NCBI GenBank assembly: GCA_020831625.1
Contig: JAFIGD010000031.1
Location: forward strand, 1-61,448
Direction: 5' to 3'
Source of the DNA: Verrucomicrobiota bacterium
GTDB lineage: Bacteria > Verrucomicrobiota > Kiritimatiellia > SS1-B-03-39 > UBA6053
DNA: 61,448 nucleotides
Numbering within the stretch: position 1 is the first letter of the stretch; each line of letters begins with the position of its first letter. Both the position numbers and the translations under genes were made by a program. Shown here one piece after another: positions 39,390 to 49,720 of this stretch. The notes under the pieces were generated by a model. It did no database searches. It had not been told where the DNA came from and saw only the letters and a program-made list of their open reading frames with translations.

Positions 39390-40583
39390 ATGATCCCCTA
39401 TTTCAAAAAAGCCACCCCGCTCACGATCGCCATGTGGGATTTCTCCTGGCTGCAAAGCCACCATCCCGGCGGTGCCTTCCAAGACCTCGAACGCTGTGTG
39501 ATCGAGGCCGCCGAACGCGGCTACAACACCCTGCGCGTGGATGTGTTCCCTCATTATTACCTTAAAGGCGAGCACACCTTTCCCGAACGCGGAACCAGCC
39601 GCCGCGTCACCTCCTGGGGCTTTGTGCGTCACCCTGGAGGCCTGACCGTCAACGTTCGCGACAACGTGATTGAACTCGCGGACCTCTGCCGCAAACACGG
39701 GCTTTGGCTCGGTCTGGACACCTGGAAATCTTTTGAAGTTCTCGGCAGCGAACTCATCCCCCCTGAACGCGAGGAGAGCGTCTGCCGCGCCTGGGCCGAC
39801 ACCTGGGTCAAGGCTCTGCGCCTCATGCGCGAAGACGGCGTTCTTGAACGCGCGGTCTGGGTGGCCCCGCTCAACGAGGTGCCGATTTTCCTCGGCAACC
39901 TCATTCAGCGGATTCGCGAATCGTCCGAAGAACTGAAGGAAATCGGCGACGGGGAAATCCGGTACCTTCGCCCCGATCACGACCCGCTCTACAAGGACCT
40001 CAACCTCTGGCTCGGCGAGGCCGTCAAAGCCGAAATCACCCGCGACGAAATCCCCCTGCTCTACTCCGGCGTGTGGGTCGAGAACTATCCCGCCCGCGTC
40101 CCCGCGATTTACGACGCCGTCGACGCCCACTTCATGCCCGACGCGCAGCTCACCGACGCCGACCGTGCCGCGCTCGAAAAAGCCGGCCCCGGAGCCTCCG
40201 GGTTCATGCTGCATCATCAACAGGAGCCCATCGACCTCGCCCTCTACAGCGCCGCCTGGGCGCGGGCCTGCCGCCGCAACTACGCCGCCATGCTCCAACA
40301 CGCCCGCGCGTTCTGCGAGACCACGCACAAGTCCCTCACCCTGCCCTGCGGCCACCGCTTCGCGGTCATCTGCACCGAAGCCTACGGCCCCTGCAACTTC
40401 CCCGACCTGCCCGAAGTCGACTGGACCTGGTACAAACACTACAACGCCGACGCCGCCCGGATCTTCGCACAGTTCCCCTGGTCCGGCCTCACCCTCTCCA
40501 ACCACGCCGAGCCGATCTTCTCCCTCTGGGGGGATGTGGATTGGCACTGCCGAAGCAACCACTATATCCTCGCGCAGTGCTGA
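39390..40583 (+). CDS. Cellulase-like (GH5-type fold) family protein
   Basis: A 397-aa protein with a TIM-barrel glycosidase layout. IAMWDFSWLQSHHPGGAF (about 13-30), YNTLRVDVFPHYYLKGEH, VAPLNEVPIF (about 169, candidate acid/base Glu), and ICTEAYGPCNFPDLP (about 329, candidate nucleophile Glu) are the key blocks. There is no signal peptide. It starts 4 nt after the GH39-like gene, so the two probably act on the same imported oligosaccharide. The ATG at 39390 is chosen; the frame upstream is inside the GH39-like gene. Confidence 0.8.
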   Translation: MIPYFKKATPLTIAMWDFSWLQSHHPGGAFQDLERCVIEAAERGYNTLRVDVFPHYYLKGEHTFPERGTSRRVTSWGFVRHPGGLTVNVRDNVIELADLCRKHGLWLGLDTWKSFEVLGSELIPPEREESVCRAWADTWVKALRLMREDGVLERAVWVAPLNEVPIFLGNLIQRIRESSEELKEIGDGEIRYLRPDHDPLYKDLNLWLGEAVKAEITRDEIPLLYSGVWVENYPARVPAIYDAVDAHFMPDAQLTDADRAALEKAGPGASGFMLHHQQEPIDLALYSAAWARACRRNYAAMLQHARAFCETTHKSLTLPCGHRFAVICTEAYGPCNFPDLPEVDWTWYKHYNADAARIFAQFPWSGLTLSNHAEPIFSLWGDVDWHCRSNHYILAQC

Positions 40584-44150: not shown

Positions 44151-44292
44151 GACATACCCCTTTCACAACATCATCGAAAAGTAACCCCAAAAAATGCAAA
44201 ACAGGAGGCCTTTTTTCAGGATCATCCTCCGCTCCGGCCGCAAAAATCTCTTCAGGGTTGCGTGCGCGGAATTTATTGATAATAGCATCTCA

Positions 44293-46629
44293 ATGAACAA
44301 AAAGCATCAGGTTTCGCTTTCCGCTCGGCCGCAACGCACTTGGCGGTGCATTCAAGCCCTGGCCTTTGTCAGTGGCGGTCTGGCTCTGGCCCAGCAGGTG
44401 TTGTGGACCCGGCGAATGATCGATCTGCTCGGCGCGGCGGCGGGCTCTTCCGCGCGCGTCTTCAGTTGCTTTTTCCTGGGCCTCGCGCTCGGCGCGGCCG
44501 CCGGCGGAGCCTTGGCCCGGCGCACAAAACGCCCCTGGAAATGGATTGGCCTCGCGGAATTGGGGGTCGCCCTTTTTTGCCTGCCGATGGTGTTCCTGCC
44601 CCAGTGGTCGCGGGAGCTGTGGCCCTGGCTGGGACCGGAGCGACTGACCGGTCCAGTGGGCGCCGGTCTGAAAACCCTCCTTTCTGTGGGGCTGGTCCTC
44701 CCCCCCGCCCTCTTTATGGGCTTTTTCCTGCCCCTGGCAGTAGCCGGACGCCCCCGGAACATCCGCACGCGCGATCCGGGTCTCCGCCTCTATGTGATCA
44801 ATACCCTCGGGGCCGTGGCCGGTATTCTTTGGGTCACCCTGTGGCTGCCGGCACGCTTCGGCATCCTCAACGCCATGCTCTGGGTCATCGGCGGCAATGT
44901 TGCCTCCGCAGCCGTCTACTTCCTCCTGAACCGTCTGCCAGACCTGCAACCGACTTCGGTTCCCCGCTCCGCAAAAACATCCGCCGCCGGCTTTCCCCCG
45001 AAAGGACTGCTCACACTCGCCGCCGTCTCGGGCGCGGGCGTACTTTCCATCGAGATTATCGCCTTGAAAATGGTGCAATGGGTGGCACCGCTGTCTTTCT
45101 TCGGTCCGGGGGCCATCCTCGCCAGTTTCATCGGCCTGCTTGTCATCTCCTCCGCGCTGGTGGAACAGGGAATCCGCCGCAGCCCGTTCTCCGACACCGC
45201 CCTCCTCCTCACAGCGCTCGCTGCCGGCCTGCTCTTGCTGCTGACGCCTCCGCTGTTCCGGTTTTTCGCCCCGGCCTTTTCCGATGCGGGCGCGCCCGGC
45301 CTGTTGGTCTTCTTCATCCGGCTGATGTTCTTCACCCTGCTGGTTTTTGGCCCGGCGGTGCTGATCGCCGGATTCTGGTTCCCGCTCGCCGCCCACAAAG
45401 CGGCCGAAACCCTGCCCGATCACCCGGAAACAGCCTGGGCCTGGATGCTGGCCGCGAACGGCGCCGGCGGCCTGCTGGGCGCCGAATTCACCCTGCAGAT
45501 CCTCTTGCCTCTGGCGGGTCCCTTCCCCGCCCTCGGCATTCTGGGCGTGATTTACCTTTTCGCCGCCTGGATGCTGCTCCCCCGCGAAGCGCCCCGCTCG
45601 TGGAGCGTTGCCGTCGGAGCCCTGACCTTGACCGCATTGCCTGTCTCTTTTCAAATCTTCCCCCAATTGCCCACCGTACACCCCTCCTTCGCGCCCTATG
45701 TGCTCGATGAACATCACGGCCGGGAGGGCAGCGTGATCCTCCTGGACTCGCCCCGCACCGGCCGGGCCATCCTCCTGCAGAATCAGTATATCCTCGGCTC
45801 CAGCCTCGCGGTGCCCGAACAGGAGCGCCAGGCGCATGTGCCGCTGCTGCTGCATCCCGCCCCCCGTCAGACAGGCTTCATCGGCGCCGGCACCGGCATC
45901 TCCCCGGGCGGAGCGCTCCGCCACAGCGCCGTCGAACAGGTCACCACCGCCGAAATCTCCGCTGCTGTGCTTCGCGCCGCGGATCAGGGCTTCGCAAAGG
46001 AAAATCACAACCTGATGCATCACCCGCGTTCGAAGGTGGTCACTGAAGACGGCCGCACCTGGGTCGCAGCGCATATCGGCTCCTTCGACGTGTTGATTTC
46101 GGACTTATTCCTCCCCTGGGGACCCGGTGAGGGGCGCTTATATACCCTCGAACATTTCCATGCCTGCCGCCGCGCCCTGCGGAAGGACGGCCTGTTCTGT
46201 CTCTGGCTGCCGCTGTACCAACTGACCGACGAGCAGACGCTCCTCATTCTCAGAACCTTTCTCGAGGTCTTCGGGGAGGCCGAACTCTTCCTGCGGGAAC
46301 GTGAGGATCAAACCCCGGCCCTGGGTGTCATCGGCGGTCTGCGTCAGGTGAATCCCGATACCGCCGCCGAACGGCTGCTCGAAGAGCCGGGACTGAACGA
46401 TCCGGAAATTACGCCGGCACAACGGCTCCTCGAACTGCGCCTCGGGCGAATCCGCCGCACCGATTTTCCCGGTGACGTGAACACCCTGGACAACCTCCGT
46501 CTGGAACTGGCCGCCGGTCGCATGCGGGCCACCCTGTATGAGGAGGCGCCTTACCTCACCGGCGAACGCCTGCGCGCCTTTCTGGAAGATCTGCCGATGG
46601 ATCGAACCTTCAGCGGGGCGCCGAATTAA
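44293..46629 (+). CDS. Large membrane protein with a spermidine-synthase-like C-terminal domain
   Basis: A 778-aa protein. Residues 15-470 form about a dozen TM helices ([36 protein letters not shown]), and residues 490-740 resemble a methyltransferase-like polyamine synthase fold ([16 protein letters not shown] about 541; [11 protein letters not shown] about 592; FDVLISDLF about 607). Such fusions are common and their substrate is unknown. An upstream in-frame start at 44194 exists; 44293 is preferred because the first TM helix follows at the usual distance. Its end overlaps the convergent pseudopilin by 20 nt. Confidence 0.8.
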
Positions 46630-47353
46630 CCAGACCCGGATTGGTTCCCCCTGTAATCAAGTCATAAAACACCTGCGCGGGCACATGCAGAACCCCGCCG
46701 TCGGCATACAGATAATTGGAGCCTCCGTTTAACTGCTGCGGATGAGGCCTGCCGCGGTGAAAACGGTCCGCCGCCACGTCCGATAAAAACCGGTTCCAGT
46801 TATTCCACGTTCCCGTGTGGGTATGATCATTCCTGGCCCCGGTTCCCACCCGGTCGGAGGCCACCACCGACAACAGGGTGCGGGCCGGCTGCTCAATTCT
46901 CGTTAAATGTCCAATGCCGCCCGGAAGCGGATTTCCTCCCGGATCCAGGGCAATATCGAAAATACGGTCATTCGCCAAATAAGACGTGCCGCCCCGTCTA
47001 AGCCGTTCAGCGCCTCTTGGATCCGCCGGGGAAATGCGAATGGCGTCCATGTCCCCCAAATACGGCCGCAAAACAAAAATCCAGGCCTCTTCTTCAGAGG
47101 CAAAATGGCGGGTCGGGGGAAGCCGCCCCTGATGTTCCGTCGCATACGTCAGCACCGCCATGCCCACCTGACGGAGGTTGGACATGCATTGCGTCCGGCG
47201 CGCCGACATCAGCGCGTTCGAAACCGAGGGCACTAAAATCACCCCTAAAATCGCAAGAATCGCGATTACCACCAACATTTCAATCAGCGTGAACCCACGC
47301 CGATTGATTCGGGATGAACCGGAAAACAAAATTGAAGCACTTGATTGCAGCAT
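46610..47353 (-). CDS. Type II pseudopilin-like protein with prepilin N-terminal motif
   Basis: A 247-aa protein with the class III cleavage motif [19 protein letters not shown] (about 18-36), then [21 protein letters not shown] (about 56-76) and the C-terminal [13 protein letters not shown]. This is the DUF1559-like/PVC pseudopilin architecture, numerous in these genomes and mostly uncharacterised. A leading stretch (residues 1-17) before the motif is longer than in most pilins, so a start nearer the motif is possible. It is divergent from the PEP-CTERM gene. Confidence 0.88.
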
Positions 47354-47378
47354 GTCTCCCCTTTACACGCATCAAACG

Positions 47379-47396
47379 ATATTGCAAAATCAATAT
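47379..47396. promoter_or_regulatory. Perfect dyad ATATTG-N6-CAATAT
   Basis: An 18-bp inverted repeat, ATATTGCAAAATCAATAT, lies 26 nt upstream of the pseudopilin start codon and 17 bp before the -35 of the PEP-CTERM gene. It is a candidate operator for either gene. Confidence 0.35.
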
Positions 47397-47412: not shown

Positions 47413-47440
47413 TTGACGAATCAAATCTGATGCGTATTAA
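47413..47440 (+). promoter_or_regulatory. Predicted sigma70 promoter of the PEP-CTERM operon
   Basis: TTGACG (47413-47418) and TATTAA (47435-47440) are separated by 16 nt. The start codon is 49 nt downstream with AGGA at 47478-47481. Confidence 0.6.
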
Positions 47441-47455
47441 ATGAGAATCATCTTT
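47437..47455 (+). promoter_or_regulatory. Fur-family-like box overlapping the -10
   Basis: The stretch at 47437-47455 contains AATGAGAATCAT, matching the core of the 19-bp Fur consensus at 12 of 19 positions, including AATGA and AATCAT. It overlaps the -10 and presumed start site, a classic place for repression by a metal-sensing Fur-family protein. Confidence 0.5.
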
Positions 47456-47488
47456 CAATAAGAAACGACACCAACCCAGGACCTCTCA

Positions 47489-48310
47489 ATGAACACCCCC
47501 ATCAAAACCCTCCTCGCCGGTCTCGGACTGGCCGCACTGCTTCCACTGTCAAACGCCCAAAACATTGAATTTAACGGCGGCGTGGTCGACCTCGTCTTTT
47601 ATTATGCCAGCCAGGAAGGCACCGGCGGCACCTGGTATCCGATTTTTCGCAATAAAGGCACAACCAGTGCGACCGGAAACACGACGACTTTTAACGGATT
47701 TCCAGGGATTGTTGGCAATGAAACCGCCAATGACGTCAGCTTCAGCAACCTGACCGTGAATGTGTCCACAACCACAGCGGTAACGGTTGGATCAACGTCC
47801 TATTTTGTTGCCACAGCCTCCGGCTCCCCGTTTCTAAACGACGGTTCCACACCGGACCTCGGTTTCCGGACCCGGCTCAGAGAGGATCAAAACGCCCTGG
47901 GGATCGGAGAAATTTCGGCGGCGAATCAATTCGACTCGCTCAATTTCACCTTGAATCTCGGGGCCTCAACCTTCAACGGAAACCCTCTCGCGGGGAATGC
48001 GGATGTCAGCCTTCTTCATTGGGATGGAGCCGACAATCCGGCGCCGATGATCGACACCGCCGCCGGTTCATTAACCGCAAACTTCGGCAACTACGCCCAT
48101 GTGCACCGGAACTGGGGCTTTTCGGACTACGGTCAATACACATTGAGCTTTGACCTCCAGGGCGTCGGGGGAACCTACGGAAACACGGCCTCCACGGGAA
48201 GCCTCGACATCACGTTCAATGTCATCCCCGAGCCCTCCACAGTCATGCTCCTCTTAACCGGAGCCATCGGCCTCATCGGAGCCCGCAAACTGAAAAATCG
48301 CAATGCGTAA
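47489..48310 (+). CDS. PEP-CTERM surface protein with choice-of-anchor M (TIGR03769-like) domain
   Basis: A 273-aa secreted protein: signal peptide (residues 1-23, cleaved near SNA-QN), a beta-rich mature region with AHVHRNWGFSDYGQYTLSF (about 200-218), the hallmark of choice-of-anchor M domains, and a C-terminal PEP-CTERM tail (IPEPSTVMLLLTGAIGLIGA then RKLKNR). PEP-CTERM proteins are sorted by exosortase, not seen here. In Actinobacteria this domain travels with metal-type ABC transporters. The gene overlaps the next by 8 nt and has a Fur-like box in its promoter. Confidence 0.88.
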   Translation: MNTPIKTLLAGLGLAALLPLSNAQNIEFNGGVVDLVFYYASQEGTGGTWYPIFRNKGTTSATGNTTTFNGFPGIVGNETANDVSFSNLTVNVSTTTAVTVGSTSYFVATASGSPFLNDGSTPDLGFRTRLREDQNALGIGEISAANQFDSLNFTLNLGASTFNGNPLAGNADVSLLHWDGADNPAPMIDTAAGSLTANFGNYAHVHRNWGFSDYGQYTLSFDLQGVGGTYGNTASTGSLDITFNVIPEPSTVMLLLTGAIGLIGARKLKNRNA

Positions 48311-49412
48311 ACGTTTAAATTTCAGGTCTCTTTCTCTGTTCCTGATTCTGCCTGCATTCGTGCAGGCGGAATCTTTTGATTACCGGGCCTATACCGATCA
48401 GCATATGGATATCGGCCCGAAACTGGAGAACGGCGTCTTGTCAGGCTACTGGAAAAACGATTTCGCCGTCATAGAGGGTGTCATTGATCTCACAGCGGAA
48501 TTCGAAGCCCACGAACTCCGGGCTGTGGGCATCTTCGATTCGGACACACCGCCCTACATACGGAACTCCGGAAGCCAATGGAATTTTTTAGGTGTCGGGG
48601 CGGGTGAACCGTTTTACGCCTTCCCTTCCGGCGGCATCCCCGACACCCTTCCCTATTTGGGTTTCTCCACCGAACATCCTTCCGTGGGTGCCTATGAGGA
48701 TTTTAGAATCACATTGACCGCCATGACCGGCCCACAAGGCGGTGTTTTTTCACTCTACACCGGCGCGTCAAATGTCTTCATGAACACGCTGAACGGCATA
48801 TCGCCCGAGGAGGATTATATTGACCTCCAGGTCGGTGACCATGCGCACTACAACTGGGCCTTCTCCCTTCCCGGCACCTACGACCTCACCTTCCTCTTTG
48901 AAGTCTTTGACGCGATGGGAACTCTGTCCCATTCCGGATCCGACACCTTTCGCTTTCACATCACCACCGGCGGCGGCTACGACAATTACGAACACTGGCG
49001 CCGCACCCATTTTCATCCCGATGACTTTGAAGACGACGCCATCAGCGGTTCGGAGGCCGACGCGGGACTCGCCGTCGGTCTCCCCAAACACTTCACCAAC
49101 GCCCAGCGCTTCGCCTTCGGCAACAATCCGACCGTGGAATTCACCGAGGTCGAAATCGACTCGGTTCTCTATCCCGCCGTTCGTCTGACCCTGCGTAAAG
49201 ACACCGGCGGTCTGAACACCTTTCCCGAAGTTGCAACCGATCTCCTCGGTTCATGGTCGGATGATCTCACCGAAGTCGAATCCGAGCGGAAACGCATCCG
49301 TCACGATCCCGGCCTCGAACGCCGCTTATACCGGCTCAACACCCCACCCGCCGACGGCCCCCTGTTCTTCCGCGCCGGCGCCGAAATCGTCAGCGAAATC
49401 AGTGCCGATTAA
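48303..49412 (+). CDS. Second secreted choice-of-anchor M domain protein
   Basis: A 369-aa protein with a signal peptide (LSLFLILPAFVQA, about 9-21) and DHAHYNWAFSLPGTYDLTF (about 178-196), the same motif as in the upstream protein. It has no PEP-CTERM tail. Instead, residues 255-369 resemble the C-terminal domain common in verrucomicrobial exported proteins (AQRFAFGNNPTVEF...FFRAGAEIVSE). It overlaps the upstream gene by 8 nt, so both are expected from the Fur-box promoter. Confidence 0.82.
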   Translation: MRKRLNFRSLSLFLILPAFVQAESFDYRAYTDQHMDIGPKLENGVLSGYWKNDFAVIEGVIDLTAEFEAHELRAVGIFDSDTPPYIRNSGSQWNFLGVGAGEPFYAFPSGGIPDTLPYLGFSTEHPSVGAYEDFRITLTAMTGPQGGVFSLYTGASNVFMNTLNGISPEEDYIDLQVGDHAHYNWAFSLPGTYDLTFLFEVFDAMGTLSHSGSDTFRFHITTGGGYDNYEHWRRTHFHPDDFEDDAISGSEADAGLAVGLPKHFTNAQRFAFGNNPTVEFTEVEIDSVLYPAVRLTLRKDTGGLNTFPEVATDLLGSWSDDLTEVESERKRIRHDPGLERRLYRLNTPPADGPLFFRAGAEIVSEISAD

Positions 49413-49420
49413 GACGTGTG

Positions 49421-49504
49421 ATGTGAGATGCGTGCGATCGGACGAGCAAGCTCAGCCTTCATGAAATAGATTAAGATTATGATTAAGATTAAGATTAAGA
49501 TTAA
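49421..49504. repeat. Composite repeat fragment with hexanucleotide tract
   Basis: ATGCGTGCGATCGGACGAG and GCAAGCTCAGCC, as in the repeat islands at 26.9 and 61.4 kb, precede six GATTAA-type units (49469-49504). Confidence 0.85.
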
Positions 49505-49620
49505 GAAATAGAACATCTGTAGTCTCTCCCCCCCCCGTTGTCCCACAGCATCCGTGGTCTCTCCATTCCCTTGGGCGTTCAATGTTCGACGTTCGGTTTC
49601 AATGTCCCCCCTCTTCACTC

Positions 49621-49720
49621 ACCATTCGTCACTCGTCACTCTCCATTCGTCACTCTCCATTCGTCACTCTCCATTCGTCACTCCCCATTCGTCACTCGTC
49701 ATTCGTCACTAATTCGTCAT
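49621..49720. repeat. Minisatellite of CATTCGTCACT(C/CTC) units
   Basis: About seven tandem copies of CATTCGTCACTCTC or shorter variants fill this stretch. The tract extends into the end of trpD, so the last codons and stop of that gene lie inside a repeat unit. Confidence 0.85.

What the first reader, a model, noticed from the sequence alone, without database searches (positions are those of the whole stretch)
47413..49412. Two anchor-M surface proteins under a Fur-like box
A sigma70-like promoter carries AATGAGAATCAT over its -10, and both downstream genes encode choice-of-anchor M domains, one with a PEP-CTERM sorting tail. In Actinobacteria this domain accompanies metal ABC transporters. 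The combination suggests a metal-starvation-induced surface binding system in a Gram-negative PVC bacterium, which I believe is undescribed.
Basis: partly seen in the sequence, partly recalled or inferred. Interest (0 to 1): 0.62.

Follow-up and report, generated by a model that had tools for sequence, protein, structure and literature searches.

The report
Zinc-starvation surface protein gene cassette
The two genes encode zinc-type surface proteins that look switched on by zinc starvation; similar proteins are known in diphtheria bacteria, but here they belong to a conserved, largely undescribed gene set of uncultured Verrucomicrobiota-related bacteria.

Summary
AATGAGAATCAT (47440-47451) is half of a 20-nt palindrome, 47440-47459, abutting the -10 of a sigma70-like promoter. 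Gene B is a choice-of-anchor M protein; gene A is a divergent relative with a PEP-CTERM tail. The metal is most likely zinc, not iron. A matrix trained only on promoters of the zinc chaperone gene zigA in seven relatives ranks three sites highest in the 61-kb window: the promoters of an MFS/spermidine-synthase fusion, of gene A and of a pseudopilin. The same box precedes zigA and an OMP-znuACB operon elsewhere in this genome. In relatives and the window 23 of 25 matches fall in this cassette's promoters. The regulator is probably the Fur-family protein on contig C15, whose orthologue sits beside znuABC. Gene B carries the HxD/HxH motif that Corynebacterium diphtheriae ZnuE and ZnuG need in growth assays. 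So the kind is known. New here are the PVC version with two anchoring styles, and the Zur-box linkage to the pseudopilin and the MFS/spermidine-synthase fusion; the anchor-M/pseudopilin neighbourhood recurs in Verrucomicrobiota, Planctomycetota and Fimbriimonadaceae. Capture and hand-over of zinc are inferred, not shown.

The parts
44275..44294 (.). Zur-type palindrome ATTGATAATAGCATCTCAAT at the start of the MFS/spermidine-synthase gene
   Evidence: best matrix score in the window, 23.7 bits; 1 mismatch of 12 to TTGATA-N6-TATCAA, among the 7 best sites of the genome
44293..46629 (+). fused MFS / spermidine-synthase-like membrane protein, 778 aa
   Evidence: NF037959 62 bits, cut-off 40; orthologues 44-56% identical in the cassettes of relatives; similar to solved spermidine synthases over residues 480-650
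46610..47353 (-). DUF1559-type pseudopilin, 247 aa
   Evidence: N_methyl and SBP_bac_10/DUF1559 above cut-off; beside anchor-M genes in relatives and in other classes and phyla
47375..47394 (.). Zur-type palindrome AACGATATTGCAAAATCAAT before the pseudopilin gene
   Evidence: third-best matrix score in the window, 18.0 bits
47413..47440 (+). sigma70-like promoter TTGACG-16-TATTAA
   Evidence: read in the sequence; a TTGACA-17-TATTGA arrangement is at the same place in relatives
47440..47459 (.).
   Evidence: second-best matrix score in the window, 18.9 bits, p about 5e-7 per position
47489..48310 (+). gene A: exported anchor-M-like protein with PEP-CTERM tail (residues 246-269) and HxHxNWxF (residues 204-211), lacking the HxD half
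   Evidence: AlphaFold model beta-rich with a C-terminal helix, mean pLDDT 68
48303..49412 (+). gene B: choice-of-anchor M protein with HxD (residues 34-36) and HxHxNWxF (180-187); C-terminal module of about 140 aa without a PEP-CTERM
   Evidence: NF038134 83 bits, cut-off 55; motif residues invariant or nearly so in 13 orthologues
48402..48410 (+). HxD half of the predicted zinc motif of B (HMD)
48840..48863 (+). HxH half of the predicted zinc motif of B (HAHYNWAF)

Best explanation
The locus is a zinc-starvation cassette repressed by a Zur-type Fur-family protein. With zinc present, Zn-Zur would sit on the palindromes at the three promoters (MFS/spermidine-synthase fusion, pseudopilin, A-B operon). 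When zinc falls, all are derepressed together with zigA, the OMP-znuACB operon and a His-rich lipoprotein/ABC operon. A and B are exported beta-sandwich proteins. A is sorted to the envelope by its PEP-CTERM tail and exosortase; B has another C-terminal module. B, and perhaps A, bind zinc through the HxD/HxH site and concentrate it at the surface for the outer-membrane proteins and ZnuABC. Supported by computation: shared palindrome, conserved cassette, motif. Inferred: repression by Zur, zinc binding, delivery, and the roles of the pseudopilin and the MFS/spermidine-synthase fusion.
For: (1) A matrix trained only on zigA promoters of seven relatives has its three best window sites (23.7, 18.9, 18.0 bits; next 12.0) at the cassette's three promoters. 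(2) In 12 relatives' loci plus the window, 23 sites fall in 8.2 kb of cassette promoters against 2 in 164 kb elsewhere. (3) In this genome the palindrome precedes a ZigA-type gene (597.5 bits, cut-off 600; 0 mismatches), an OMP-znuA-znuC-znuB operon and a His-rich lipoprotein/ABC operon. A second ZnuA-family operon has no site above 14.5 bits. (4) The orthologue of the C15 Fur-family protein is divergent from OMP-znuACB with two boxes between (G006); the other Fur-family gene is beside katG. (5) Anchor-M and ZigA co-occur: 10 of 13 genomes with anchor-M have ZigA against 10 of 133 without (not corrected for kinship). ZigA, Znu or Fur-family genes also neighbour anchor-M genes in other classes (L228, L231, L234, L237, L238, L240, L241, L243). 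(6) B has HxD...HxHxNWxF, invariant or nearly so, the motif of C. diphtheriae ZnuE/F/G (PMC12445094). (7) PEP-CTERM tail on A and two exosortase genes in the genome.
Against: No expression or binding data. Zur and Fur cannot be told apart by sequence here; some relatives hold only one Fur-family gene, and a FeoB-like gene carries the same box, so a mixed metal regulator is possible. The AlphaFold models are of medium confidence (pLDDT 73 and 68) and coordinates were not inspected, so the spatial meeting of HxD and HxH is not shown here. A lacks the HxD half. In C. diphtheriae, znuF or znuG deletion did not reduce growth in zinc-limited medium when ZnuAECB was present (PMC12445094).
Confidence: 0.82

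Rival explanations
1. The box is an iron Fur box and the proteins belong to an iron-starvation response.
For: TGAGAATCAT resembles Fur half-sites; a FeoB-like permease on C13 has a perfect palindrome.
Against: The same box precedes zigA in all eight family-f1 genomes checked and znuACB; the FeoB-like gene and its flavoprotein neighbour lie in a znu cluster (L237) or with zigA (L202, L238) in relatives.
Confidence: 0.1
2. The cassette is Zur-controlled, but A and B are zinc-free replacement surface or adhesion proteins attached to a pseudopilin fibre rather than zinc scavengers.
For: The pseudopilin is the commonest neighbour of anchor-M genes outside the own class (15 of 27 loci); the beta-sandwich model aligns weakly with pilus adhesin lectin domains such as FimH and FmlH as well as cupredoxins, Z about 6.
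Against: The HxD/HxH site is conserved in B orthologues and in nearly all anchor-M loci checked from other classes and phyla; related C. diphtheriae proteins shift in melting on zinc addition, and the motif histidines are needed in growth assays (PMC12445094).
Confidence: 0.2
3. The box is a chance sequence and the gene pair an ordinary, unregulated pair of surface proteins.
For: The 12-mer itself is expected by chance.
Against: Independent matrix and comparative tests.
Confidence: 0.03

Closest known systems
ZnuE, ZnuF, ZnuG, CmrA, CmrA2 of Corynebacterium diphtheriae (anchored-repeat Znu system; PMC6711530, PMC12445094)
   Same: HxD-(about 150 aa)-HxH motif, secreted and anchored, Zur- and zinc-repressed, linked to a zinc ABC transporter.
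   Different: Gram-positive, sortase or C-terminal TM anchors; no pseudopilin or MFS/spermidine-synthase partners described there. Here PEP-CTERM or another C-terminal module, divided into A (HxH only) and B (complete motif).
ZepA of Anabaena and PVC homologues (PMC10957091)
   Same: Zur-controlled exported PEP-CTERM protein with an Ig-like beta sandwich; COG0523, TonB receptor and Fur-family neighbours.
   Different: ZepA zinc motif H-X2-9-H-[FY]-H is not conserved in A or B. A functional parallel; homology not shown.
ZigA / COG0523 zinc metallochaperones in Zur regulons (PMC2770081)
   Same: zigA shares the box in this genome and lies in or beside the cassette in several relatives.
   Different: Cytoplasmic chaperone; here only regulon context.
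NCBIfam choice-of-anchor M (NF038134) and TIGR03769
   Same: B meets NF038134; A and B meet TIGR03769.
   Different: A does not meet NF038134.

Membership tests
choice-of-anchor M (NF038134) | score above curated cut-off 55, gene B | tested here: met
   gene B 83.2 bits
choice-of-anchor M (NF038134) | score above curated cut-off 55, gene A | tested here: not met
   gene A 31.5 bits; over TIGR03769 cut-off and aligned to B by hhalign at 97.8%: a divergent relative, not filed as a member
ZnuE/F/G-type zinc surface proteins | HxD and HxH about 150 aa apart, gene B | tested here: met
   gene B residues 34-36 and 180-182, conserved in orthologues
ZnuE/F/G-type zinc surface proteins | HxD and HxH about 150 aa apart, gene A | tested here: not met
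   gene A has HxH 204-206 only
ZnuE/F/G-type zinc surface proteins | zinc binding | not testable with these tools
   needs purified protein
PEP-CTERM / exosortase substrates | C-terminal PEP, hydrophobic stretch, basic tail, and an exosortase in the genome | tested here: met
   gene A residues 246-269, 23.2 bits, cut-off 16; two exosortases; Pfam score 19.5 just below 20.7
Zur regulon | operator shared with zinc-uptake genes | tested here: met
Zur regulon | Fur-family regulator that senses zinc | tested here: inconclusive
   two Fur-family genes; orthologue of one beside znuABC; metal specificity not testable
ZepA | conserved H-X2-9-H-[FY]-H motif | tested here: not met
   absent from A; one match in window B (HWRRTHFH), absent from all its orthologues checked
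Fur (iron) regulon | operator shared with iron-uptake genes | tested here: inconclusive
   only the FeoB-like gene, which sits with znu or zigA genes in relatives

The most novel reading that the evidence does not exclude
The cassette is a self-contained extracellular zinc-scavenging device: the MFS/spermidine-synthase fusion makes and exports an aminopropyl-type zinc ligand, the pseudopilin displays or secretes the anchor-M proteins, and these capture zinc or the zinc-ligand complex for hand-over to an outer-membrane receptor and ZnuABC.
Probability: 0.13. Interest if true: 0.8.

Novelty: new variant of a known kind. Interest (0 to 1): 0.55.

Why it matters
It gives a probable function (zinc handling at the cell surface) and a regulator to a surface-protein family of uncultured soda-lake Kiritimatiellae and other PVC bacteria, extends a system studied in Corynebacterium to Gram-negative bacteria with a different anchoring machinery, and ties two families of unknown role, a DUF1559-type pseudopilin and an MFS/spermidine-synthase fusion, to zinc starvation. 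The operator is specific enough to predict a regulon in organisms that cannot yet be cultured.

Tried and rejected
Iron Fur box: rejected as the leading reading because of the genes that share the operator. The 12-mer as evidence by itself: not beyond chance. ZepA membership: motif absent. Solved homologues of A or B: none by sequence. Fold searches gave only generic beta-sandwich matches (weak; best Z 6.4 to cupredoxin domains of copper nitrite reductase and CueO, in the range that may mean only a common arrangement). Literature: no paper held combines the Zur regulon with Verrucomicrobia, or the zinc uptake regulator with Kiritimatiellota. A first tblastn used the MFS protein in a wrong frame; corrected.

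Full report
What is there. Gene A (47489-48310) and gene B (48303-49412) overlap by 8 nt and follow TTGACG-16-TATTAA; AATGAGAATCAT starts at the last base of the -10. B is a choice-of-anchor M protein (83 bits, cut-off 55); A is below that cut-off but meets TIGR03769 and NCBIfam PEP_CTERM, and its alignment matches the alignment of B by profile comparison (97.8%). Next to them are a divergent DUF1559-type pseudopilin (46610-47353, -) and, before that, a fused MFS/spermidine synthase (44293-46629, +).

The cassette is conserved. Among 146 relatives 13 have anchor-M. In families f1, f9 and f14 the four genes MFS/spermidine synthase, pseudopilin, A and B occur together in several orders; zigA is next to them in several genomes (G008, G056, G058, G073, G113), and a TonB-dependent receptor lies beside the G058 cassette. 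In two genomes a B-type protein has its own PEP-CTERM and is followed by the pseudopilin (L031, L032). Beyond the class, 15 of 27 anchor-M loci have a pseudopilin homologue (Verrucomicrobiota, Planctomycetota, Fimbriimonadaceae) against none in 14 comparison loci (181 kb) without anchor-M; these comparison loci were chosen for zinc or Fur-family genes, not at random. ZigA, Znu, Fur-family, FeoB-like or MFS genes neighbour many others; in G297 (L237) OMP-ZnuACB, flavoprotein, FeoB-like permease, anchor-M and pseudopilin lie within 11 kb.

The box. Upstream regions of relatives' cassettes share a palindrome TTGATA-N6-TATCAA close to the -10. In the own genome the best sites are before a ZigA-type gene (C5, 0 mismatches), a FeoB-like permease and a flavoprotein (C13), a His-rich lipoprotein with ABC genes (C30), and the MFS gene of the window (C46); a 2-mismatch site precedes the OMP-ZnuACB operon (C73). 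Two further 1-mismatch sites (C49, C110) have no clear zinc gene beside them. At up to 2 mismatches the genome has 62 sites against 33 for the reversed pattern, so many weaker sites are chance. All eight family-f1 genomes with a full-length zigA have the palindrome before it with 0-2 mismatches; in f9/f14 zigA follows a bL28-type ribosomal protein gene. To avoid circularity a 20-nt matrix was trained on seven zigA promoters from relatives only. In the 61-kb window its three best sites are 44275 (23.7 bits, MFS), 47440 (18.9, gene A) and 47375 (18.0, pseudopilin); the fourth scores 12.0. Over 12 relatives' loci plus the window, 23 of 25 sites of at least 14.5 bits are in cassette promoters (8.2 of 172 kb). 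Caveats: promoters are AT-rich, though under the composition of the own intergenic region the 47440 site still has p = 4e-5 per position; and the loci are related to each other, so these are not 23 independent events.

The regulator. The genome has two Fur-family genes. One is beside katG and resembles PerR models. The other, on C15, has orthologues in all four genomes of the genus and in most of the family searched; in G006 its orthologue is divergent from OMP-ZnuACB with two boxes between, and in G004 a box lies directly before it. I call it the Zur candidate; sequence alone does not prove metal specificity, and where it is the only Fur-family protein it might serve more than zinc.

Function. 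B carries HxD (34-36) and HxHxNWxF (180-187), conserved in its orthologues and in nearly all anchor-M loci checked from other classes and phyla. Peng et al. 2025 (PMC12445094) describe this HxD/HxH motif, about 150 aa apart, in C. diphtheriae ZnuE, ZnuF, ZnuG, CmrA and CmrA2. They saw zinc-dependent thermal shifts and a requirement for the motif histidines in growth assays, but could not pin zinc binding to the motif in vitro. The genes are Zur-regulated (PMC6711530). Gene A has the HxH half only. Fold searches give generic beta sandwiches. The best reading is a zinc-starvation surface system; capture and delivery are inferred. The roles of the pseudopilin and the MFS/spermidine-synthase fusion are open.

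Novelty. Zur-controlled anchor-M proteins are known in Actinobacteria, and a Zur-controlled PEP-CTERM exoprotein (ZepA, other motif) is known in cyanobacteria with PVC homologues (PMC10957091). The PVC anchor-M cassette with pseudopilin and MFS/spermidine synthase, and its operator, I did not find described in the papers held.

Noticed in passing
G000:C13:48712-48729 and 40222-40239 (L108): Perfect and near-perfect copies of the same palindrome before a FeoB-like permease and a flavoprotein; both genes lie with zigA or znu genes in relatives (L202, L237, L238), so they may serve zinc rather than iron.
   Followed up: partly
L134 and L136, upstream of zigA in family f31: A different palindrome, TTGCGATAATTATTATCGCAA, at the same place, which may be a lineage variant of the Zur operator.
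   Followed up: no
L200 2851-3483 (-), also L202, L204, L205: Uncharacterised protein of about 210 aa in zigA operons (between two COG0523 genes in this genome), conserved in several families of the class.
   Followed up: no
G000:C30:84860 (L201, L115): Palindrome before a His-rich lipoprotein followed by ABC transporter genes, resembling from memory the zrgABC arrangement of Vibrio.
   Followed up: partly
L203, L034 and other f9/f14 zigA loci: zigA directly follows a bL28-type ribosomal protein gene, a classical Zur-regulon partner; whether it is the zinc-free form was not settled.
   Followed up: partly
window 48344-48373: 13-bp hairpin followed by TTTT within the signal-peptide region of gene B, a possible attenuator between A and B.
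   Followed up: no
window 49468-49710: Tandem repeats (AGATTA x6.5; 14-nt TCGTCACTCTCCAT x5.6) directly downstream of gene B.
   Followed up: no
window 48984-49409 (gene B residues about 228-365): C-terminal module conserved in B orthologues without PEP-CTERM; it may be an alternative sorting or anchoring domain, since B-type proteins of G008 and G019 have a PEP-CTERM instead.
   Followed up: partly
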